Shown one piece after another: positions 13,869 to 23,902 of a stretch of DNA of 64,000 nt. The stretch spans positions 62,001 to 126,000 of the forward strand of contig CANSLJ010000004.1 in the NCBI GenBank assembly GCA_947647735.1, read 5' to 3'. The notes beneath the pieces were generated by a model. It was not told where the DNA came from, did not search any database, and saw nothing but the letters and a program-made list of their open reading frames with translations. The translations under genes and the position numbers were made by a program. The first letter of the stretch is position 1; each line of letters opens with the position of its first letter. Source of the stretch: an uncultured bacterium (lineage in GTDB: Bacteria; Bacillota; Clostridia; Lachnospirales; Lachnospiraceae).

Positions 13869-13902
13869 ACAGATATGGGTCAGCCGCTCATATCTGTTTT
13901 TC
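13869..13902 (+). terminator. Intrinsic terminator after the XRE-lipoprotein unit
   Basis: ACAGATATG (13869-13877) pairs perfectly with CATATCTGT (13889-13897) around an 11-nt loop, followed by a T-run to 13901. It separates this unit from the two-component operon. Confidence 0.8.
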
Positions 13903-14003
13903 ATTCCCATTTTTTATGGTTTTATTCCATTTTGCATAAAAATATACAGATTATGCCGATAAAATAAGTAGCAAAATAATTTCAACATTTTGAGGTATGA
14001 CAT

Positions 14004-14717
14004 TTGATCGAGATAGCAATCGTGGATGATGAACAGATCATCCGGGAAGAGATAGAAAACCTGATCAGGGAACAGGAGCCTTGCTGCCAAATTGAGACTT
14101 ATGCATCCGGGGACGAGCTACTCCTTGCGGGAAAACAGTATGATATTGTATTTCTGGATATACAGATGGAAGGAAGAGACGGCATCGATACCGCACGGAT
14201 GCTCCGGCAGAAGGCGGAAAACACAGTGCTGGTCTTTGTGAGCGGAACAAAGGATCATGTTTTTCAGGCATTTGATGTATCTGCCTTTCATTATCTTTTA
14301 AAGCCGCTGGAAAAGAAAAAATTCGGGGAAGTGCTGCATCGTGCCGTTTCAGAAGCGGAAAAACAGAAGAAAGAGGAGACAGGTTTTTTGCTTGTCAAGA
14401 CCAGAAACCGCACCGCTCCTGTACAGAAAAACCATATCTTATATGTGGAAAGCAGAGGAAAAAAGGCAGAACTACATACCATAAAAGAGACTTTTGAGAT
14501 GTATGCGTCCTTAAACGGCCTGGAGATGGAACTTGGCGGGAATTTTTACCGCTGTCACAGGGGATATCTTGTGAATCTGGCGTATGTGGCGGAATATGAT
14601 CATGAAAGCATTCTTCTGACAAACGGAGAAAAGGTATATCTGACAAAAGAAAAATATCCAGAGTTTGTAAAAGCATATATGCGTTATCTGAAGAGCGGAG
14701 GCGTTTCTTATGGCTGA
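14004..14717 (+). CDS. LytTR-family response regulator
   Basis: A 237-residue regulator starting at TTG with GAGG eight bases upstream. The receiver domain has acidic D8/D9, phospho-acceptor D52 (IVFLDIQM) and K100 (HYLLKPLEKK). Residues about 130-232 are a LytTR DNA-binding domain (ILYVESRGKKAELHT, FYRCHRGYLVNL), the AgrA/VirR type. Its end overlaps the sensor kinase start by 8 bp, and the kinase in turn overlaps the first of seven unknown genes, so its likely target is this operon. Confidence 0.93.
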   Translation: MIEIAIVDDEQIIREEIENLIREQEPCCQIETYASGDELLLAGKQYDIVFLDIQMEGRDGIDTARMLRQKAENTVLVFVSGTKDHVFQAFDVSAFHYLLKPLEKKKFGEVLHRAVSEAEKQKKEETGFLLVKTRNRTAPVQKNHILYVESRGKKAELHTIKETFEMYASLNGLEMELGGNFYRCHRGYLVNLAYVAEYDHESILLTNGEKVYLTKEKYPEFVKAYMRYLKSGGVSYG

Positions 14718-16332
14718 GCGCACGGCGGTTGTCTGTGAGATCATAACATTTTTCATACAGGGATACTGCCTGCAGTACTTCTTTGGCAGTTTTCTGGAGA
14801 GCAGGATATCTGACAAAAGGAAAAATATCCTTGCAGTCTCCGCCGGTTATTGTACCTTTAAAACAGCGCTGGCTCATCTGGTGTCTTCCGACTTGCAGAA
14901 TGCCGGAAGTTTTTATCGGCTGATCCTGTACTGTCTGCTGTTTCCGGCTTTTATCTTCTGTTTTTACAGGGCGGCAAAGACCATCACGGTTTTCTTATTC
15001 ACCACCTTTCTGGCACTTGGCGAGATCAGTTTCTTCATCGGTTATATGGTGATGAGTCTGAGTACGCTGGTGCTGGAGGTGGAAACGGACCTTTTCACCC
15101 GCGGTTATATCGATGCGGCCTATTTTGAGCAGATCCTCCGGTTTACGGCGGCGCTCCTGCAGATTTTCTGTTGCGCGCTATGGGTGCTGATATTGTTTTT
15201 TTCCCTGAAAAAAGTGGTCTGTGACTTTCGGGAAAAGGAGTATGAGATGCGCAGGACAGAGCTCCTTTTTATCCTTACGCCGGGACTGATGGGATTTCTG
15301 CTCTGTGTCCTTCTGCGTATCATCATGGTTACGGTGGAAAACGGCATGCCCGCCCTCCTGTATGACAGATATCCCGCCCTGCGCGTCCTGATCCCTGCCA
15401 TTTTGCTGCTCGCGCTGTTGTCCATTCTCTACAGTGTGAAACTGTTTCAGGATATGATCCTGCGGGGCAGAGAGCAGAATAACCGCATTATTTTAGAACA
15501 GCAGATCAGCAGTATGCAGGAACATGTGGGAGAGATCGAGCGGCTCTACGCAGGTGTGCGGAGCTTGAAACATGATATGAAAAATACGCTGGCGGTGCTG
15601 ATGCGACTCGCGTCGGCGGGAGATGGCGCAGGGAATCCGGAACTTGCCGATTATCTGGCGGAACTGAATCAGAGCTTTGACAAACTGGAATTTCGGTTCC
15701 GGACGGGGAATGCGGTGGCGGATGCGCTCCTGAATATGAAATATCATGAGATAAAGCGCTGTTTTGCAAAGGGCGGCAGTTCTGAGAAGAAAAATCCTGA
15801 ATGGTTTGATTTCGATGCGGATGATCTGCTGTTTCCAGAGGAACTTGCCATCCAAAGTTATGACATAGGCGTCATATTGGGGAACGCACTGGACAACGCG
15901 ATAGAAGCCTGCAGACGGCTTGTACAGGAACATCCGCAGGCAGAGCCCTTCATTCGGTTATCCTCGTTCCAGCGGGGCAGATTTTTCTTTCTGGAAATCG
16001 AGAACAGCTTTGACGGAATGCTGAAAAAGAGCAGTCAGTCAGAGTTTCCTGCAACACTGAAAGAGGATAAACAGATGCACGGCGTTGGCTTTGCCAACAT
16101 CAAAAAGACGGCGGAAAAGTATGACGGCGGGGTGGATTATTCTGTGGAAGATCGTTTGGGCAGTCTGGGAGATGGGGCTGCTTTCCCGGTATTTACTTTG
16201 TCAGTCATGCTGAAAAACAGCGGGCGGACTGCCGACAGTAATACCGTGGGAGCCGGGAGAAAAATGCGGAGTGAAGAAGAGGTACAGGTAAATTTTGAAG
16301 CGGCAAGAAAGGAGGAATGCAGATGGAGTTAG
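14710..16332 (+). CDS. GHKL sensor histidine kinase (AgrC-like)
   Basis: A 540-residue kinase. The first 250 residues contain about six to seven membrane helices with little extracellular sequence, as in peptide-sensing AgrC-type receptors. A coiled segment leads to the phospho-acceptor H288 (LKHDMKNTLAVL), the N box (LGNALDNAIEA, N392) and the GVGFANIKKTAEKYDGG box. No AgrD/AgrB-like peptide gene is nearby, so the ligand is unknown. The C-terminal tail extends about 45 residues past the catalytic domain and overlaps the next gene start by 10 bp, giving tight coupling to the unknown cluster. Confidence 0.92.
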   Translation: MAERTAVVCEIITFFIQGYCLQYFFGSFLESRISDKRKNILAVSAGYCTFKTALAHLVSSDLQNAGSFYRLILYCLLFPAFIFCFYRAAKTITVFLFTTFLALGEISFFIGYMVMSLSTLVLEVETDLFTRGYIDAAYFEQILRFTAALLQIFCCALWVLILFFSLKKVVCDFREKEYEMRRTELLFILTPGLMGFLLCVLLRIIMVTVENGMPALLYDRYPALRVLIPAILLLALLSILYSVKLFQDMILRGREQNNRIILEQQISSMQEHVGEIERLYAGVRSLKHDMKNTLAVLMRLASAGDGAGNPELADYLAELNQSFDKLEFRFRTGNAVADALLNMKYHEIKRCFAKGGSSEKKNPEWFDFDADDLLFPEELAIQSYDIGVILGNALDNAIEACRRLVQEHPQAEPFIRLSSFQRGRFFFLEIENSFDGMLKKSSQSEFPATLKEDKQMHGVGFANIKKTAEKYDGGVDYSVEDRLGSLGDGAAFPVFTLSVMLKNSGRTADSNTVGAGRKMRSEEEVQVNFEAARKEECRWS

Positions 16333-17129
16333 GAGTGATGGGCAGATCAGGGGACTACTACCTGACGGGGCAGCACCGAAAAAAAGCGGTCTCAGGCTCG
16401 GGTGAGGGCGTAAACTTTGCGGCTCTTGCGACGGCAAAGGAGAAGCAAAGCGTCAACGGTTTTTCCGATGTATTTCCGGATTATCAGGTGATCACAAAGG
16501 TCGGAGGCGGAAATGTGCCCCAGCATTTGTGGGAGAGAAATGATTTCCCGTTTGACAAATATTTTGACAACAGCACAACGGTTGACGAACTGAATCATTG
16601 GAGGCCGTCAGGGCAAAACCCGAAGATGTCGGATCCTGTTTCACAAAGGAGGATGCAAGCGGTCGGTCCCATGAAAATAAGTATCGTGATCCCGGAAAAA
16701 CTGCAGGAGAAGATGGATGCCGATCCTGAATACGCCCAAAAAATATATGACAAGGTCGCAAAATGGAAGTCGGATTATGACATACGGAACAGAGCGGCTG
16801 TGCTGGCTCTGGGACCGAGAGCGCAGGAAATCGTAGCGAAACCGTGGGAAATAAGTTACTGTCTTATCCTTGACGAAGAAGGGGAAGTCAAACAGAGTTG
16901 TGTCTTCGGTGCCACAGGAGGAAAGATCATCGGCCCGACAGCGGAAGAACAGCGTCAGTTTGAAGCAGAACAGGCGGCAAAACGGAAACGGCGTGAGGCA
17001 TATGCCCGTCTGAATGAGGAGAGTGCCTTAAAACGAAGACTGATGGAACAGGAGGTGAACGAGGAATATGATCAGCGCAGCATGACCGAAAAGGCGGTTT
17101 CCGTTTCAGCATATAAAAAAACATTTTAG
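16323..17129 (+). CDS. Unknown cluster protein 1 (module A: M..DPE helix plus charged tail)
   Basis: A 268-residue soluble protein of no family I can name. The ATG at 16323 is preferred over the ATG at 16317, which is only 1 nt from GGAGG (16311-16315). The N-terminal third looks flexible. Residues about 118-150 contain EKLQEKMDADPEYAQKIYDK; then comes a strand pair (YCLILDEEGEVKQS) and a charged helix (AAKRKRREAYARLNE). The same order recurs in proteins 2 and 3 of this cluster. It has no signal peptide or membrane helix. The start overlaps the sensor kinase gene, tying it to that operon. Confidence 0.8.
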   Translation: MELGVMGRSGDYYLTGQHRKKAVSGSGEGVNFAALATAKEKQSVNGFSDVFPDYQVITKVGGGNVPQHLWERNDFPFDKYFDNSTTVDELNHWRPSGQNPKMSDPVSQRRMQAVGPMKISIVIPEKLQEKMDADPEYAQKIYDKVAKWKSDYDIRNRAAVLALGPRAQEIVAKPWEISYCLILDEEGEVKQSCVFGATGGKIIGPTAEEQRQFEAEQAAKRKRREAYARLNEESALKRRLMEQEVNEEYDQRSMTEKAVSVSAYKKTF

Positions 17130-17165
17130 AAGTATGAAGCATTACAGGTAAAGGAGGAAATTGAT

Positions 17166-17891
17166 ATGAGCATGGACCTATCATTTTTAGCGGACAGCAA
17201 TACCCAACAGATCCTGCACCAGCTCAGAAAAGCCCAGTACCAGAAGGCACAGAAAAAAGCGGATTTCGGCAGCGTTCTTTCATCCAAAGATACTTCCGGC
17301 ACCGTATCATCGCCAGAAGCGAAACAGTACACGGAATATCTGAGAGAAAGATTCGGCGATGTATCTGTAAAAAGCGTCGGTAAAGACCAGAAGAGCATGG
17401 ATAATCTGGGCATGGGAACAGCAGGTACGGGAAATGTGGTGATCGCGCCGAATATTCTGGAGCAGATGGCGAAGGATCCGGAGAAGGCGTCTTACTATGA
17501 GGAAAAGATACAGGAATATTTCGATGGTCTTCCCCGGTTACAGGCAGAGATTTCCGCTATGGGACATGAGATACATTCCAGCGGGATCGTGATCCACCCG
17601 GACGGAACAGTAACACACTATGTTACCGGAGATCTGAAACCGGAAGAGAGAGCCAGGATCGAGGCGCGGATCAAAGCGGAAGATGAGGCAAAGGCAAAAC
17701 GCCGTCAGATGTATTTTATCCAAAGCGAGGAAGCTGCCGCACGGCGGGCGCAGGAACTTGAAGATTATTATAGACAGAAGCTGATGAGAAACAGTTTTCG
17801 CTCGGACCTTTTCGGAGAGCAAACGGTTCTGACTGACAGAGGAACCGACTGGTTATCAGCGTTTGCTTATATGGGAGGTGATCTATTATGA
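17166..17891 (+). CDS. Unknown cluster protein 2 (module A)
   Basis: A 241-residue soluble protein with AGGAGG eight to nine bases before its ATG. It follows protein 1 after 36 nt and overlaps protein 3 by 4 bp. It contains the cluster's module A: APNILEQMAKDPEKASYYEE near residues 93-113, then GIVIHPDGTVTHYVTGDL, then a charged helix (AKAKRRQMYFIQSEEAAARR). It has no signal peptide, no membrane helix and no catalytic motif I recognise. Similarity to protein 1 is in order and spacing of motifs more than in overall identity. Confidence 0.8.
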   Translation: MSMDLSFLADSNTQQILHQLRKAQYQKAQKKADFGSVLSSKDTSGTVSSPEAKQYTEYLRERFGDVSVKSVGKDQKSMDNLGMGTAGTGNVVIAPNILEQMAKDPEKASYYEEKIQEYFDGLPRLQAEISAMGHEIHSSGIVIHPDGTVTHYVTGDLKPEERARIEARIKAEDEAKAKRRQMYFIQSEEAAARRAQELEDYYRQKLMRNSFRSDLFGEQTVLTDRGTDWLSAFAYMGGDLL

Positions 17892-18775
17892 GTATCGGAA
17901 GTGTCGGATATACAGGTTATGCGGGATATACCGCAAAATATATAGCAAGTCAGGCAGGTTCAGCTTCCTCAAAAGACAGTTTTTCTGAAACTGTGACAAA
18001 GTCTGAAGCTGCCACAAAAAACGGATCTGCTGCAAAAACCGGCAGGGTTACGGAAAGCGCAGTGGACGCATATAAAAAGAAACATCCGGAGGACGCCAGC
18101 CATGTGAACGCGCAGGTGAAAGCCGGAAAAAAAGTGCTGGAGAAAAACGGCGTGACGGATGTATCCAGAGAAGATATGACGATGGAGGAGTATAAGCGGT
18201 TTTTTACCGCCCTGATGGACAGTATTCCTTTTGATGCTTCTCACCGGGGGGATGTAGAGTTCTGGTCCATCTCGGAGAAGGGGTGGGAACAGATGAAGAA
18301 TGACCCGGAGTATGAAGCCTGGGTGCTCGGCTATACATCAGAAAACAGATCGGTCTATTTTCCCTTTGCCTCCTGGCCCGGGTATTCTCCAAGCGTCTGT
18401 ACGGAAAAGTTCGGAGATTCCATCGAGCAGCATATCGGGCAGTCTGTGCCGATGAGCAGCGGGAGCAGTAAGAAAACCGGCTCTTCGGATGAGGAATCCT
18501 GGTGGGTAAAACGTCAGAAAAGGCTGAAAGAGCTTCTGGAAGAGCAGGAAAAAAGGGCGAGGGAGCAGAAGGCCCTCAACCGGAGTGCCATGGAGGAAGC
18601 AATGCTGCAGGAACAGATGGCAGGCAGTGCAAGATTGAAATATTTTCTGACAAACGGCATGATGGGCGATAAGGAAACCGCTTTTGCAGCATCGGGACAT
18701 ATGACGATTGCAGCCAGCACTTATGAGAGTGTGATGGATTTGTTCAGCAGTCATGTGAATGGCGGGAAACTGTAA
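17888..18775 (+). CDS. Unknown cluster protein 3 (MSIxxVG start, module A)
   Basis: A 295-residue protein with the cluster's MSI-Gly-rich beginning (MSIGSVGYTGYAGYTAKY) followed by about 50 Ser/Thr/Ala/Lys-rich, probably disordered residues. The middle holds WSISEKGWEQMKNDPEYEAW, matching the M..DPE motif of proteins 1 and 2. Near residue 210 begins a long charged helix (RLKELLEEQEKRAREQ). The N-terminus is neither a Sec signal nor a membrane anchor. It is coupled to protein 2 by an ATGA overlap. Function unknown. Confidence 0.8.
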   Translation: MSIGSVGYTGYAGYTAKYIASQAGSASSKDSFSETVTKSEAATKNGSAAKTGRVTESAVDAYKKKHPEDASHVNAQVKAGKKVLEKNGVTDVSREDMTMEEYKRFFTALMDSIPFDASHRGDVEFWSISEKGWEQMKNDPEYEAWVLGYTSENRSVYFPFASWPGYSPSVCTEKFGDSIEQHIGQSVPMSSGSSKKTGSSDEESWWVKRQKRLKELLEEQEKRAREQKALNRSAMEEAMLQEQMAGSARLKYFLTNGMMGDKETAFAASGHMTIAASTYESVMDLFSSHVNGGKL

Positions 18776-18819
18776 ATATAAAAATTATATATATCTAAAA
18801 AGATGAACAGAAAATGGTG

Positions 18820-18852
18820 AGTGTGCGCCGTCTTTTGTATCCGGCGCACACT
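18820..18852 (+). other. 11-bp perfect hairpin between cluster genes 3 and 4
   Basis: AGTGTGCGCCG (18820-18830) and CGGCGCACACT (18842-18852) pair perfectly around an 11-nt loop. There is no T-run after it; the ribosome site of gene 4 follows (AGGAGG). It is more likely an mRNA-stability or attenuation element within the operon than a terminator. Confidence 0.6.
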
Positions 18853-18873
18853 TATCGCAGGAGGACATAATAT

Positions 18874-20013
18874 ATGAGCATATATGGAGTCGGGATATCT
18901 GCATATTCCGCCACAGGATATGGATATACAAGAACAGGACAGACAACTGCCAGCAGAAATCATACAAACTGTACGGAAACCGTCCAGAAATCGGAAATGG
19001 CAGGCGGATCATTTGTGCTGCATTATTTTGATAACGAAGACGGGGAAAAAACGGTTGGCGCAGCCTGTGGTACCGATTATTCTATCTCGGCGTATATTCC
19101 GAAGGATTTTGATCCTGAAAATCCCGTATATAAAGTAAAGGTGTGGGATAAGGACGGCGAGGTGATGGAACGGATGGTGGATGTCTCCAAAGTGGATCCA
19201 GAGAACAGTGATTATATTGATATGTTTGCCTATGCCAGCTATCTGGAGAGCAGCGGGAAATGTCCCGGCGCCCAGTCAGCTTTTATGGGGTCCAGCGGAA
19301 ATCCTTATGATATGGGTGACAGACGATATGATGATCTGTTTGAGAAAACGAACTGGATGGGAAAACTGAAAGAGTTTATGCAGATGCAGTACGATGCGGG
19401 AAATCTGATGGGATATATGGAATATAAAAAATTCTATGATTTTCTGGGGACTGACAACGCGATGGAAAGCAGCGGCGTATCCGGACAGAACAGGATATCC
19501 GGGGAAGAGAAAGCATCTGTACAGTATCAGAGGACGGTTGAAAGATCGGAAACATCCAATGAAAGAACGGATGGGCAGAATATGACAGTCTTCTACAACG
19601 GGATTCCTCTGGAAGAGCGGAAAAATACGGATAAAAAATATACGGATCCGGAAACTGGTATCTCTTTCTATGTCGCAGACGGAAAGCATCCGTATATGGC
19701 GGGGGAAGATGTGGAAAAACTGAAAAAACTGTGTGCCGAGACCGGAGAGCCTTTCCTGAAGAAAATGGCAGAGATCACCGGAGTGATCCGGCATCTGGAC
19801 AACAATACAACCGTCTATATTGCTGACAACGGTGCGGTGATAAAGTCGAAAGACGGCAGAGAATTGAGTATAGATACCTCCTCGCTCTCCTACGATGTGC
19901 TGTCTTATATGTTTCAGAATCTCGGCGGAACAAAAGAGTATTTTAATGAAGCATACTGGAATGCCAGGATGCGGGATGCGGTCGGAAACTATCTGACAGC
20001 AGACCACAGCTAG
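18874..20013 (+). CDS. Unknown cluster protein 4 (MSIYGVG start, module B)
   Basis: A 379-residue protein beginning MSIYGVGISAY, without signal peptide or membrane helix. Residues about 60-190 hold module B: ENPVYKVKVWDKDGEVMERM, then KVDPENSDYIDM and a helical part with LKEFMQMQYDAGNLMGYMEY. The same order occurs in cluster protein 7. The C-terminal 150 residues contain TDPETGISFYVADGKHPY and DVLSYMFQNLGGTKEYF; the latter resembles a stretch of protein 5. AGGAGG precedes the ATG. No enzyme motif is visible. Confidence 0.8.
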   Translation: MSIYGVGISAYSATGYGYTRTGQTTASRNHTNCTETVQKSEMAGGSFVLHYFDNEDGEKTVGAACGTDYSISAYIPKDFDPENPVYKVKVWDKDGEVMERMVDVSKVDPENSDYIDMFAYASYLESSGKCPGAQSAFMGSSGNPYDMGDRRYDDLFEKTNWMGKLKEFMQMQYDAGNLMGYMEYKKFYDFLGTDNAMESSGVSGQNRISGEEKASVQYQRTVERSETSNERTDGQNMTVFYNGIPLEERKNTDKKYTDPETGISFYVADGKHPYMAGEDVEKLKKLCAETGEPFLKKMAEITGVIRHLDNNTTVYIADNGAVIKSKDGRELSIDTSSLSYDVLSYMFQNLGGTKEYFNEAYWNARMRDAVGNYLTADHS

Positions 20014-20019
20014 ACCATA

Positions 20020-20054
20020 TCAGACAGTTAGGATTTATCATCTTATCTGTCTGA
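20020..20054 (+). other. Short inverted repeat between cluster genes 4 and 5
   Basis: TCAGACAG (20020-20027) and CTGTCTGA (20047-20054) pair around a 19-nt loop in the 66-nt gap. No T-run follows. It could be an intercistronic mRNA hairpin; it is too weak to call a terminator. Confidence 0.35.
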
Positions 20055-20079
20055 CCAGATACGAAAGGAACAGATCTAT

Positions 20080-21804
20080 ATGGAAATATCAAACCATGGA
20101 GCAGGTCAGGGTTCCTGGTATGTGAACCCCAATACCAGAACCCTGACATCCAACAGAAAAAATGCGGAGATAAAAGACAGGGATGCTTTCGGCTGTATGC
20201 AGCACCTGCTGAATCCTGTGGAAGATATGGTAAAAGCGCTTACAACCCCCATTAACCTGGCGGACAGGAACACAGTAAACAGAGCTTCCAATACCATATC
20301 GATCGCGGCGGGAACACAGATCGCAGTAAATGACGGTTATATCCTGACCGTGACAGAAAGAGGCGTGGAATGTCATCACGGAAAAAATTATGATCCCTAT
20401 GATGTGGAAGCCTACAAAAGAGCACAGGGGTTTGCCGACTCCCTCGCTGTCCTTTTGCGGAATGCGGGAGGCACACAGCAGGCTGCAGCTTTCAGCCGGG
20501 AAGAATATCAGAAATGGACAGGAAATGTTTCCGGCGTATTGTCTTATATGGGACTTGACAACAGTCGGGATTTCACCTTGAACGGCATGAAATACCATAA
20601 AAATGCAGCCGGCTGTTGGGAGTCAGCATCAAACAGAAGTGCAAAAGCGGTTTATGAACAACAGCAGGCAAACAACAGAACCTTCACCTATGCAGATGAA
20701 CGGACAAGAAAACAGATCAATTACATCAGCAACTACTATCTGGAACATACATCGGAGAGGATGCGGGCGGCATGGCAGAAAGCAATGGAAGAGACAGGGA
20801 TCAACCCGTTCCCGGAAGGTTTTTCCAGCACACTGTCCCAGCTTGCCATGGAACAGGATTTCGCGACAGGCGGAAATGATGATATCTTCGGGGCGGATGC
20901 AGGGAGCAATATCGCCGCAGTACGAAACATTCTTGACAGAATAAATGATCCCCTCGGCGAAATTCCCGAAAAGGACCGGAGTTTCCGAGCAGATGAGAAA
21001 GTTTTTTATGAAAGGGTGCTGGAGCACTTGACGGAAGCGGAAGGAAGTACCACAGCAACGACCGGCGAAAAGCGCCCGTATACCGCATACGAATCCGCAA
21101 ACTATCGAATCGAACCGGATAATGAAAATGAGTGCTTTACCATCTATAACGGGCAGGGAGAACGCCTCGGCGTCTTTTTCTATTCCGATATCAAATGCAG
21201 GCGGGATGATGCTTCCGGTAAGGAATTTCTGATATCCGAAAACGGAACTATGTGGTATGATGTTCTGGTTCTCGATCCTGAACTGAAAGACGATCTGAAG
21301 CATGCGGTGGGTGTCGATACGCTGAAAACAGAGCCGCTGCAGGGCTACACCCTGAAAACCCATGCCGGTACGGGCATACAGTATATTATGAAGGACGGCG
21401 ATGAAGGGCGGGGCGGAAGAGTGCTTTTACAGAGTGACGCAGACCGCGCAAAATATGAAGAACTGGCGGAAACCTACTTCAATAAATATCCGAATCTGAT
21501 CGAAAGCAAGGAGAAGGCATACATATGGGCTTCCTTCGAGATCGTAGGAATGGCGATGCGCACCAAAAACGGGATCATCTCCCTGCACTATGACGGCGCT
21601 TCCTACAATGATGACACTGATGTCAGAAACAACTGGAGCATCCGTTTTGGGAACGACACCTATCAGCAAGTCTTCGAGTGGCTCCGAAACGGGGGAGAAA
21701 AATATACCCTAATGCATAAATTCTCCTTCTGGCAGAAAGCCTTTGATGATCTGGGTATTGATTATGAAAAGGTTCTGACAAAAACGGAAGAGAAACCAGA
21801 ATAG
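20080..21804 (+). CDS. Unknown cluster protein 5 (largest; contains module C)
   Basis: A 574-residue soluble protein. The N-terminal part has NTISIAAGTQIAVNDGYILT and DSLAVLLRNAGGTQ, the second resembling protein 4. Residues about 225-325 form module C: RMRAAWQKAMEETGINPFPE, GGNDDIFGADAGSNIAA, and later EKVFYERVLEHL. The same sequence of motifs makes up most of cluster protein 6. The C-terminal half is a mixed region with WASFEIVGMAMRTKNGIISL and a terminal FWQKAFDDLGIDYEKVL. No signal peptide, membrane helix or known catalytic motif. An AAAGGAA sits upstream of the ATG. Confidence 0.8.
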   Translation: MEISNHGAGQGSWYVNPNTRTLTSNRKNAEIKDRDAFGCMQHLLNPVEDMVKALTTPINLADRNTVNRASNTISIAAGTQIAVNDGYILTVTERGVECHHGKNYDPYDVEAYKRAQGFADSLAVLLRNAGGTQQAAAFSREEYQKWTGNVSGVLSYMGLDNSRDFTLNGMKYHKNAAGCWESASNRSAKAVYEQQQANNRTFTYADERTRKQINYISNYYLEHTSERMRAAWQKAMEETGINPFPEGFSSTLSQLAMEQDFATGGNDDIFGADAGSNIAAVRNILDRINDPLGEIPEKDRSFRADEKVFYERVLEHLTEAEGSTTATTGEKRPYTAYESANYRIEPDNENECFTIYNGQGERLGVFFYSDIKCRRDDASGKEFLISENGTMWYDVLVLDPELKDDLKHAVGVDTLKTEPLQGYTLKTHAGTGIQYIMKDGDEGRGGRVLLQSDADRAKYEELAETYFNKYPNLIESKEKAYIWASFEIVGMAMRTKNGIISLHYDGASYNDDTDVRNNWSIRFGNDTYQQVFEWLRNGGEKYTLMHKFSFWQKAFDDLGIDYEKVLTKTEEKPE

Positions 21805-21866
21805 GAACAGGATATTCAAATATATGAGATCAGATAAAACAATTTGAAACATAAGGAGATTTTATA

Positions 21867-22391
21867 ATGAGCATAAACGGAATCGGTACGGCAAATATTT
21901 CATCCGGATATGAAATGAAAAGAAATACCGGAAACAATGCCGCGAAATCAAATGAATTTATGCAGACAGTGCAGGAAAAAACGGAAAATAATACAACTCC
22001 CAAAACGGCAGAGTACTATGCCGAACAGGCCTTCGCCTCCGTCGGCTCCAAAGCACCAGAAGAAGTAAAAAAGGCATGGATGGAAGCCGCAAGGCAAACC
22101 GGCGCAAACGGGCTCGGCATCGGTGGGGGCGGCATGATGACACATATTTCCCAGATGATGATACAGCGTGTGAAAAAAAGCTGGTTGAACGGCGGCGCAG
22201 ATGACAATGACATTCTCGGCAGCAGTGTATCTTCCGCGATCGCTGCCGCAAAGCAGGCTCTCTATGATCTGGAAAATCCGCTCACTGCCGATCATCCGAG
22301 AAGCATGGAAGTACAGAGGAGCCGCATGCAGGAAAAAGCCTTTTATCAGGCGTTCATAGAAAAACTCGAGAGCGGAAAGGAGCGTGCATAA
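21867..22391 (+). CDS. Unknown cluster protein 6 (MSINGIG start, module C)
   Basis: A 174-residue protein with AAGGAG before its ATG. It begins MSINGIGTANISSGYEMK and continues with a polar linker. Residues about 65-172 repeat module C of protein 5: EVKKAWMEAARQTGANGLG, SQMMIQ, GGADDNDILGSSVSSAIAA and EKAFYQAFIEKLES. Its stop is immediately followed by the next ATG with no gap, so proteins 6 and 7 should be made in step. Function unknown; no export signal of the Sec type. Confidence 0.8.
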   Translation: MSINGIGTANISSGYEMKRNTGNNAAKSNEFMQTVQEKTENNTTPKTAEYYAEQAFASVGSKAPEEVKKAWMEAARQTGANGLGIGGGGMMTHISQMMIQRVKKSWLNGGADDNDILGSSVSSAIAAAKQALYDLENPLTADHPRSMEVQRSRMQEKAFYQAFIEKLESGKERA

Positions 22392-22949
22392 ATGGCAGTA
22401 TCAGGCATAACGATCAGCGGTATGACACCGTCTGTTCAGACATCTCAAAATATAAAAACAGATCAGGCTTCGGAAAAAGATTATAAAAACACTGTTATGA
22501 AATGCGTCCGCGCCGGAGATCAGGATGTCCTTCTTTGCTCCGATGCACTGATGTCCTACGCAAGCCCGCAGACCGGGGAATCTGTCAATATCTACCGGGC
22601 GGAAAACTATTCCAAAGAGAATCCGGTTTATCTGATCAGGGGGCTTGACGCCTCCGGGAATCCTTTTGAACAGGAAGTAGACGCGGGTAAGATCGATCCA
22701 AATCACTGCAGTTACAATGAGCTCATGGTTTTGAATGTGGAAACCGGGCATACTTCCCCCAGCGACTACCTGCATGCAGTGGCGGCAAGAGATAAGGCGG
22801 GAGCCGGCAGTTATTTCGATAAAATGGATTATCTTTCCTGTGCGAAAGCGGTCATGAATGATATGAAGACTGTAGGAAGCTGGGATACCTATCTGGCATG
22901 CAGTAAATGGATAGACAGTCTGTTGAAATATTGTTCTGAAAATATCTGA
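22392..22949 (+). CDS. Unknown cluster protein 7 (MAVSGIT start, module B)
   Basis: A 185-residue protein and the last gene of the cluster. It begins MAVSGITISGMTPSVQ and then carries module B as in protein 4: ENPVYLIRGLDASGNPFEQE, KIDPNHCSYNELMVL, and a helical stretch ending KWIDSLLKYCSENI. Several cysteines are present but no metal-site pattern is obvious. The next gene converges from the other strand 11 nt later. No clear intrinsic terminator was found after it. Confidence 0.8.
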   Translation: MAVSGITISGMTPSVQTSQNIKTDQASEKDYKNTVMKCVRAGDQDVLLCSDALMSYASPQTGESVNIYRAENYSKENPVYLIRGLDASGNPFEQEVDAGKIDPNHCSYNELMVLNVETGHTSPSDYLHAVAARDKAGAGSYFDKMDYLSCAKAVMNDMKTVGSWDTYLACSKWIDSLLKYCSENI

Positions 22950-22960
22950 TATTTTTTCAC

Positions 22961-23902
22961 TTATTTTCCCTGCCGGCTCTGTTCCAGATTGGCAGGGAAA
23001 ATATCCGCCACTTCATTGATCGCGATATAAGCCTTCGGATCGATCTTATGTACCAGATTTTTCATCTTTCCGACCTGAAAACGGTTCACCACAAAATAGA
23101 TCAGTGTTTTTTCCGAATTGGAATAATAACCCTTTGCATCGATGATGGTCATACCGTTTTCAAAGGTCTCGGAAAGCGCTTTGCAGACATCCGCCTGACG
23201 GGTCGTGATGATAAACGCCGCTTTGGAACGGTCGAAGCCTTCCACAAAGAAATCCACGGTCTTCGACGCGGCGGCATAGGTCACAATGGAGTAGAGCGGC
23301 AGCACCCAGCTGTCCAGGACGATCCCGCATATGATATAGAGAAACACGTTGTAGATCATCACGAAACTGCCAAGGCTCAGCCCAAGACGTTTTGCAAACA
23401 TCACCCCGAGGACATCTATGCCGTCGATAGCGCCGCCGGATCTTACCGTGAGCCCGCTGCCGCACCCGGAGATGATCCCACCGAAGATAGCGCACAAAAA
23501 CAGATCCGTCTCCGCAAGAGGAGAAGCGATCGTCACATCTACGGGCAGGATATCCGTAATGATCCACGCCGTCACAGAATACACTAAAACCGCATAGATC
23601 GAATAGATCGTAAATGCCGGCCCCTCCTTCTTCAACCCGAACAGAAAGATCGGAATATTGAGCAGGATCAGGATCAGCGACAGACTGCACCATGCAGGTG
23701 TCTGCTGGGAAACAAGCATAGCCGTACCCGATATCCCGCTGTCAAAAAGCTTCACCGGCGCAAGAAACATGATAACGCCGAAAGCGTTGACGATACCTGC
23801 TATCGTCAGGAACAGAAAATGTATGCCGTTCAGCATATGAAGTATGTCCAGAAAGCGTTCTTTTTGTTTCATGACGATCGATCTCAATGATATTTTTTTC
23901 AT
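22961..23902 (-). CDS. YitT-family membrane protein (DUF2179)
   Basis: A 313-residue protein. The ATG at 23902 is chosen because GGGAG lies 9 nt upstream; longer in-frame starts lack a ribosome site. It has about six membrane segments (from GIHFLFLTIAGIVNAFGV onward), the family stretches PVKLFDSGISGTAML and GCGSGLTVRSGGAIDGIDVL, and a C-terminal cytosolic DUF2179 domain (AAFIITTRQADVCKALSETF). The family is widespread in Firmicutes; molecular function is unsettled. It converges on the unknown cluster. Confidence 0.9.
   Translation of the reverse strand: MKKISLRSIVMKQKERFLDILHMLNGIHFLFLTIAGIVNAFGVIMFLAPVKLFDSGISGTAMLVSQQTPAWCSLSLILILLNIPIFLFGLKKEGPAFTIYSIYAVLVYSVTAWIITDILPVDVTIASPLAETDLFLCAIFGGIISGCGSGLTVRSGGAIDGIDVLGVMFAKRLGLSLGSFVMIYNVFLYIICGIVLDSWVLPLYSIVTYAAASKTVDFFVEGFDRSKAAFIITTRQADVCKALSETFENGMTIIDAKGYYSNSEKTLIYFVVNRFQVGKMKNLVHKIDPKAYIAINEVADIFPANLEQSRQGK

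What the first reader, a model, noticed from the sequence alone, without database searches (positions are those of the whole stretch)
14004..22949. Two-component system fused in one operon to seven unassigned, modular proteins: candidate undescribed system
A LytTR regulator, an AgrC-like kinase and seven genes run in one direction with overlaps or tiny gaps (8 bp, 10 bp, 4 bp, 0 bp) and one internal hairpin. None of the seven has a signal peptide, membrane helix or enzyme motif I can recognise, yet they share at least three modules among themselves. A dedicated sensor plus a set of duplicated, diverged structural-looking proteins suggests an assembled complex or secreted set made on a signal.
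Basis: partly seen in the sequence, partly recalled or inferred. Interest (0 to 1): 0.88.

Follow-up and report, generated by a model that had tools for sequence, protein, structure and literature searches.

The report
Flagellum-linked modular protein operon with sensor
A gut bacterium of the family Lachnospiraceae carries seven uncharacterised proteins behind their own sensor and regulator, with a flagellar-type promoter and, in several of the proteins, a start region like that of proteins exported through the flagellum, which suggests that the swimming organ also serves as a controlled secretion device.

Summary
The operon is real: LytTR regulator 14004-14717, AgrC-like kinase 14710-16332, seven genes 16317-22949. 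It belongs to a modular, flagellum-linked system that I found in no paper searched.

(1) In 42 of 79 related loci such a regulator-kinase pair leads a set of these genes: 45 countable operons, 1-9 genes, 34 orders.
(2) Promoter: two 9-bp direct repeats (13899-13928), then a sigma-D (FliA) -10 box (13955-13962). The repeats (at most 1 mismatch) precede 25 of 45 such operons and 3 of 532 control genes; repeat-to-box distance is 26-27 nt in all 26 measured. The held 4.1-Mb genome has exactly two sites; the other precedes a sister operon.
(3) The S2 family (DUF6033) is in 46 of 150 one-per-genus genomes. All 46 have flagellar FlhA, against 79 of 150 overall (p 2e-17).
(4) Sequence-unrelated modules share an N-terminal F-x-x-x-hydrophobic motif: 107 of 177, shuffled mean 28. 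Five early flagellar substrates of this genome have it, five late ones do not. S2, S3 and S6 have it near residue 32; S4, S5 and S7 lack a strict match.

Best explanation: proteins exported by the flagellar type III apparatus under two-key control. Export is inferred, cargo function unknown, structure prediction never ran.

The parts
13899..13928 (+). tandem direct repeat TTTCATTCC-N12-TTTTATTCC, proposed LytTR operator
   Evidence: two sites in the genome, none for the reversed pattern; 25 of 45 operons vs 3 of 532 controls at 1 mismatch or fewer
13937..13962 (+). sigma-D (FliA) type promoter TAAA-N14-GCCGATAA
14004..14717 (+). RR: response regulator with LytTR DNA-binding domain (TTG start)
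14710..16332 (+). HK: AgrC-like GHKL membrane kinase
16317..17129 (+). S1: module A, weak DUF6033; F-x-x-x-phi only at residue 49
17166..17891 (+). S2: module A, DUF6033; motif F34-G-S-V-L
17888..18775 (+). S3: module A superfamily after iteration; motif F32-S-E-T-V
18816..18856 (+). strong RNA hairpin between S3 and S4, not conserved in place
18874..20013 (+). S4: module B (N-terminal half) and D (C-terminal part); no motif
20080..21804 (+). S5: modules CN, C and E, corresponding to two separate genes in other genera; no motif
21867..22391 (+). S6: module C; motif F31-M-Q-T-V
22392..22949 (+). S7: module B; Tyr variant of the motif (Y31-K-N-T-V)
22964..23001 (.). inverted repeat at the end of the operon, over the 3' end of the convergent gene; possible terminator
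   Evidence: read by eye, not tested

Best explanation
The locus is a flagellum-linked secretion cassette. The LytTR regulator, activated by the AgrC-like membrane kinase on an unknown outside signal, binds the tandem repeats 26 nt upstream of a sigma-D -10 box and switches on its own operon. Transcription therefore needs two keys: sigma-D set free by flagellar assembly, and the kinase's signal. The products look cytosolic; several have flexible N-termini with a two-part signal (small hydrophobic residues near 3-8, then F-x-x-x-hydrophobic near 30-35), and the set leaves the cell through the flagellar type III export apparatus. Gene content shuffles between species, as expected for proteins that act on something outside the cell rather than for fixed flagellar parts. 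SHOWN by computation: recurrence of the operon, promoter layout, two repeat sites in this genome, co-occurrence with FlhA, enriched N-terminal motif. INFERRED: that the repeats bind this regulator, activation rather than repression, export itself, action outside the cell.
For: Operon recurrence: 38 of the 57 loci with at least 3 kb before the first A gene have a regulator-kinase pair directly ahead of the set; 45 countable operons with 34 gene orders. Promoter: sigma-D score 9.02 for 45 regulator upstreams vs 7.63 for 532 controls; tandem repeat 25 of 45 vs 3 of 532, distance to the -10 box 26-27 nt in all 26 measured; two sites in the genome, the second before a sister operon with the same spacing. 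Flagella: 46 of 46 DUF6033+ genomes have FlhA vs 79 of 150 overall, p 1.9e-17, BMC control 28 of 42; nine further DUF6033+ genomes of the class sample all have FlhA; one set lies between flagellin and FliS. N-terminal motif: 107 of 177 vs 28.2 shuffled, while 467 neighbouring proteins equal their shuffles (161 vs 157.9); enriched in modules A2, A3, B and C. Early flagellar substrates of this genome 5 of 5, late 0 of 5, matching the two-signal model of PMC8983047 (passages).
Against: No export data. The motif marks early (rod/hook) substrates, whereas the promoter is of the late class. S4 and S5 lack the motif, S7 has only the Tyr variant and S1 has it only at residue 49; modules A4 (0 of 8), D (0 of 5), F (0 of 4) and CN (1 of 5) lack it or nearly so. 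It is common by chance: 161 of 467 neighbours and FliH, which is not known to me as a substrate, have one. Classical DUF6033 proteins, which also have sigma-D promoters, have it in 0 of 29. The -10/-35 motif alone is no rarer than its reversed control in the genome, 13 vs 19. Module B and S5 also occur in G135, without FlhA or flagellin, on a 4.7-kb contig. In L214 and L215, from other families, DUF6033-like genes lack a good sigma-D site. Of the 57 loci 13 show no sensor pair ahead of the set (by eye). Genera and upstream regions are not independent.
Confidence: 0.6

Rival explanations
1. The proteins are exported but are accessory parts of the flagellum itself (alternative caps, sheath or hook-filament modifiers), switched by the two-component system to alter the filament.
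For: One locus runs flagellin-RR-HK-set-FliS; a paralogue in this genome carries a FliD_C domain next to an S1-like protein (35.1 bits, cut-off 25.4); the motif is the rod/hook type.
Against: Gene content varies widely, 34 orders in 45 operons, and 33 of the 79 FlhA+ genomes have no DUF6033 match at all, so the set is not needed for a flagellum. The L113 relative of the FliD_C protein has no Pfam match at 0.01.
Confidence: 0.2
2. The proteins stay in the cell as sigma-D-dependent regulators or chaperones of motility, and the N-terminal motif has another meaning.
For: No export data; the motif is absent from several modules; a charged helical stretch of S2 gives a weak non-significant match to MotB (E 0.059).
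Against: The same motif at the same place on sequence-unrelated modules, at several times the shuffled rate, is hard to explain without a shared partner such as the export gate; large modular bodies are unusual for such regulators (judgement).
Confidence: 0.12
3. The set belongs to a peptide (RiPP/bacteriocin-like) production system and the flagellar link is indirect.
For: In L214 and L099, DUF6033-like or S3-like genes stand beside a radical-SAM peptide maturation cluster (TIGR04068, TIGR04066, TIGR04069); L215 looks the same by eye. LytTR/AgrC-type pairs regulate bacteriocins in other bacteria (recalled).
Against: DUF6033 is tied to FlhA in 55 of 55 positive genomes examined. The window list around the operon (10-27 kb) shows no such maturation genes by eye; the 79 loci were not searched for them.
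Confidence: 0.05

Closest known systems
Campylobacter jejuni flagellum-exported non-flagellar proteins (Feds, FspA, Cia; review PMC9856085, passages; FlaC paper PMC4863622, search listing only)
   Same: Non-flagellar proteins co-expressed with flagella; FspA from a sigma-28 promoter; Feds not required for motility; exported by the flagellar apparatus. Here: sigma-D type promoter and strict co-occurrence of DUF6033 with FlhA.
   Different: There a few single genes in a Gram-negative pathogen; here shuffled multi-gene operons with a dedicated sensor pair and a LytTR/sigma-D promoter in Gram-positive commensals. No sequence comparison with the Campylobacter proteins was made.
Flagellar-apparatus-dependent secretion in the Bacillus cereus group (PMC12109265, passages)
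   Same: Gram-positive; the secretome changes when the flagellar export regulator FliK is lost.
   Different: No dedicated operon, regulator or shared N-terminal signal in the passages seen.
Agr-type LytTR/GHKL two-component systems
   Same: LytTR regulator, GHKL kinase, tandem 9-bp direct repeats 12-13 bp apart (the AgrA site layout is recalled, not looked up).
   Different: No AgrB or AgrD noticed by eye near the operon; the promoter is of the sigma-D type.
DUF6033 (PF19498)
   Same: S2 is a member; S1 is a sub-threshold relative.
   Different: Function unknown; classical members have a canonical sigma-D promoter in many cases, no tandem repeat and no F-x-x-x-phi motif.

Membership tests
Flagellum-exported non-flagellar proteins (Fed/FspA-like) | sigma-28/sigma-D promoter | tested here: met
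   Window 13937-13962; 28 of 45 operons score 9.0 or more vs 9 of 532 controls. By sequence only.
Flagellum-exported non-flagellar proteins (Fed/FspA-like) | secretion that requires the flagellar export apparatus | not testable with these tools
   Needs an experiment; FlhA co-occurrence 46 of 46 is indirect.
Flagellum-exported non-flagellar proteins (Fed/FspA-like) | not required for motility | not testable with these tools
   33 of 79 FlhA+ genomes have no DUF6033 match, which is only indirect.
Early (rod/hook-type) flagellar export substrates | gate recognition motif F-x-x-x-phi at least about 19-30 residues after an N-terminal hydrophobic signal (PMC8983047) | tested here: inconclusive
   S2, S3 and S6 meet it; S7 has Tyr; S1 has it at 49; S4 and S5 do not. 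Family-wide 107 of 177 vs 28.2 shuffled.
DUF6033 (PF19498) | score over the curated cut-off of 25 bits | tested here: met
   Met by S2 (91.6 bits) only; S1 has 20.6 bits; S3-S7 no match.
AgrBDCA quorum-sensing system | LytTR regulator with GHKL kinase | tested here: met
AgrBDCA quorum-sensing system | AgrB and AgrD encoded beside the pair | tested here: inconclusive
   None noticed by eye in the ORF list of 10-27 kb (ORFs of 60 aa or more); no profile search was made, and AgrD would be shorter than that limit.
Type VII (WXG100/LXG) substrates | WXG100 or LXG domain | tested here: not met
   No such Pfam match in S1-S7 at E up to 1.
Anti-phage defence systems | PADLOC model match | tested here: not met
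   Six of seven none at 0.01; S6 has one weak partial match, PDC-M35B, 18.7 bits over 47 residues.

The most novel reading that the evidence does not exclude
Motile gut Lachnospiraceae possess a widespread, shuffling repertoire of effectors sent out through the flagellum. Each cassette has its own sensor, and transcription is AND-gated by flagellar completion (sigma-D) and an outside signal (LytTR), so the flagellum works as a regulated secretion machine in Gram-positive commensals.
Probability: 0.4. Interest if true: 0.92.

Novelty: new variant of a known kind. Interest (0 to 1): 0.78.

Why it matters
The papers I saw on export of non-flagellar proteins by the flagellum concern pathogens. A sensor-controlled, modular version in commensal gut bacteria would be a protein delivery route in a major part of the gut flora, would give a role to DUF6033 and its partner modules, and offers a two-key promoter and an export signal that can be tested in harmless laboratory organisms.

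Tried and rejected
Rejected: type VII substrates (no WXG/LXG match); phage genes (PHROGs: best S2 to phrog_2480, E 4e-4, unknown function) and defence genes; a solved-structure relative by sequence (best for A5 E 0.059, for A6 E 1.2); homology of the S2 family to this genome's FlgM (hhalign probability 0.5 %), so the FlgM-like look of some N-termini stays an impression; the sigma-D motif alone as genome-wide evidence (13 hits vs 19 reversed); the internal hairpin as a conserved element.

Literature searched: 'DUF6033', 0 papers; flagellar type III + Lachnospiraceae + effector, 3; Lachnospiraceae + FliA + promoter + flagellin, 2; flagellar type III secretion + Firmicutes + non-flagellar + effector, 7; LytTR + AgrC + flagell + Lachnospiraceae, 0; Roseburia + flagellar type III secretion, 1, a review not opened; LytTR + sigma28 + flagell + two-component, 1. 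By listing (titles and abstract starts) none describes this set. Structure prediction never ran.
Full report
What is there. The nine ORFs are as described. RR is a receiver-LytTR protein and HK a GHKL kinase with a hydrophobic stretch between residues 65 and 251. S2 is DUF6033 (8e-26); S1 is a sub-threshold relative; S3-S7 have no Pfam or NCBIfam match better than E 0.019, and PHROGs gave weak matches only. Pairwise phmmer confirms shared modules: A (S1, S2), B (S4 N-terminal half, S7), C (S5 middle, S6). S5 corresponds to two genes that stand separately in other genera. No S protein has a membrane-helix or Sec-like stretch.

The system recurs. A genome scan with an S2-type alignment kept the best 80 of 140 relatives, 79 loci. 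Most are titled Lachnospiraceae, others Clostridia, Oscillospiraceae or unclassified, with two odd labels (Bacteroides L160, Helicobacter L170). Named ones include Sporofaciens musculi, Schaedlerella arabinosiphila, Eubacterium plexicaudatum ASF492 and Acetatifactor muris. In 42 of 79 loci a regulator-kinase pair is followed within two genes by a set gene; of the 57 loci with at least 3 kb before the first A gene, 38. By eye on the map, six of the other 19 have a displaced, split or long-gap pair and 13 show none. Of 46 such operons, 45 are countable; they carry 1-9 set genes (8 carry one) in 34 orders (lower bounds, see Tried and rejected). L114, L115 and L116 have seven set genes in the window's general order. 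In L113/L176 (one contig) the set stands between flagellin and FliS (Pfam). The module-B search was independent of S2: of 18 genomes with B, 12 have DUF6033.

Link to flagella. Among 150 one-per-genus genomes of the family, DUF6033 is in 46 and FlhA in 79; all 46 are FlhA+ (hypergeometric p 1.9e-17). The control family BMC, in 42 genomes, is FlhA+ in 28 (p 0.024). Module B: 17 of 18 (p 7e-5); S5: 8 of 9 (p 0.025). The exception in both is G135, which has neither FlhA nor flagellin; it holds these genes on a 4.7-kb contig, which may be misassigned. In the class sample 11 of 196 genomes have DUF6033; nine were new and all nine are FlhA+, three of them from other families. Genera share ancestry, so the p-values are a guide only.

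Promoter. Neville et al. 2013 (PMC3720852, passages) used TAAA / MCGATAa as the sigma-28 reference for gut Eubacterium and Roseburia flagellin genes. TAAA-N14-GCCGATAA begins its -10 box 49 nt before RR. As a bare motif it is not rare in the genome (13 vs 19 for the reversed pattern); its weight comes from comparison. Classical DUF6033 genes of 29 other loci score 9.37 against 7.64 for 57 control genes. Regulator genes of 45 operons score 9.02 against 7.63 for 532 controls; 28 of 45 reach 9.0 against 9 of 532. Upstream lie two repeats TTTCRTTCC, 12-13 nt apart, with at most one mismatch in 25 of 45 operons and 3 of 532 controls; the distance to the -10 box is 26-27 nt in all 26 cases in which it could be measured. 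Classical DUF6033 genes are arranged differently: TAAA intact in 12 of the 26 with a -10 box, tandem repeat in 0 of 29; operon promoters have TAAA intact in 1 of 39 and the repeat (2 mismatches or fewer) in 26 of 45. This fits an activator that replaces the -35 contact, although the window itself has both. At least nine of the operons have nearly identical upstream DNA, so counts are not events.

Regulon. The repeat pattern occurs twice in the held 4.1-Mb genome (86.6 % complete), 0 times reversed. The second site precedes, at the same 26 nt from TCTGCCGATAT, another A2-type gene. Its operon seems to continue across a contig break (C16 to C45) to a module-B gene ahead of genes that look by eye like spoIIIA. 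So this regulator probably controls both sets.

N-terminal signal. Bryant et al. 2022 (PMC8983047, abstract and passages) describe two signals in early flagellar substrates: small hydrophobic residues at 2-5 and a gate recognition motif (36-FLTLL-40 in FlgD), export rising as their separation grows from 19 to about 24-30 residues. In this genome the FliK, FlgD, Flagellar_put, FlgE-type and FlgB proteins have F-x-x-x-phi at 33-49; FlgM, FlgK, FlgL, FliD and FliC have none in the first 75 residues. FliH has one too, so a single match proves nothing. S2, S3 and S6 have it at 31-34, S7 the Tyr variant, S1 at 49, S4 and S5 not. Across 177 non-redundant set N-termini 107 have it at 20-50 against 28.2 (sd 4.8) after shuffling; 467 neighbouring proteins show 161 against 157.9. 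It is enriched in A2 (44/57), A3 (16/18), B (24/39) and C (5/8), less clearly in E (6/11) and A1 (11/22), and absent or rare in A4 (0/8), D (0/5), F (0/4) and CN (1/5). Classical DUF6033 proteins have it in 0 of 29, so it goes with the operon type, not with the family. One motif at one place on unrelated bodies is best read as a targeting signal.

Mechanism. Kinase signal plus free sigma-D give autoactivated transcription; the products dock at the flagellar export gate and leave. Open: an early-type signal on late-type genes, the motif-less members, the signal sensed, and what the cargo does.

Novelty. The closest known kind is the Campylobacter set of proteins exported by the flagellum, some sigma-28-dependent (PMC9856085, passages). 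In Bacillus thuringiensis FliK affects the secretome (PMC12109265, passages). The searches listed in Tried and rejected found no paper on this set. I call it a new variant of a known kind.

Noticed in passing
L010 6812-8098 and 8217-8879 (own genome, C5): An S1-like protein (428 aa) is followed by a 220-aa protein with a FliD_C domain (35.1 bits, cut-off 25.4) and an N-terminus (MRVTTSML) that resembles this genome's FlgL (MRITNKIM).
   Followed up: partly
L203 5004-5717 (own genome, C10): A 237-aa protein without a Pfam match over cut-off has an exact sigma-D motif 113 nt upstream and an N-terminus like those of the set.
   Followed up: partly
L214 5021-15368, L215 8209-15557, L099 6979-14056: DUF6033-like or S3-like genes beside a CcpM-type radical-SAM Cys-rich peptide maturation cluster (NCBIfam matches in L214 and L099; L215 by eye); L214 has five DUF6033-like copies around it.
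   Followed up: partly
L009 1-400 and L008 9178-10000 (own genome, C16/C45): A sister operon with the same repeat/sigma-D promoter and no sensor pair, split over two contigs and lying ahead of spoIIIA-like genes.
   Followed up: partly
L115 and L116, gaps between set genes: Several long palindromic intergenic hairpins with shared sequence (GATATCTGCGGAACTGG type), which look like mobile repeat elements.
   Followed up: no
L106 5889-8494: Two module-B genes around a 430-aa gene without a sensor pair on the stretch read, next to genes that look by eye like molybdenum cofactor genes.
   Followed up: no
L094 (G135, 4.7-kb contig): Set genes in a genome bin without FlhA or flagellin: a remnant, a misplaced contig, or an exception to the flagellar rule.
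   Followed up: partly
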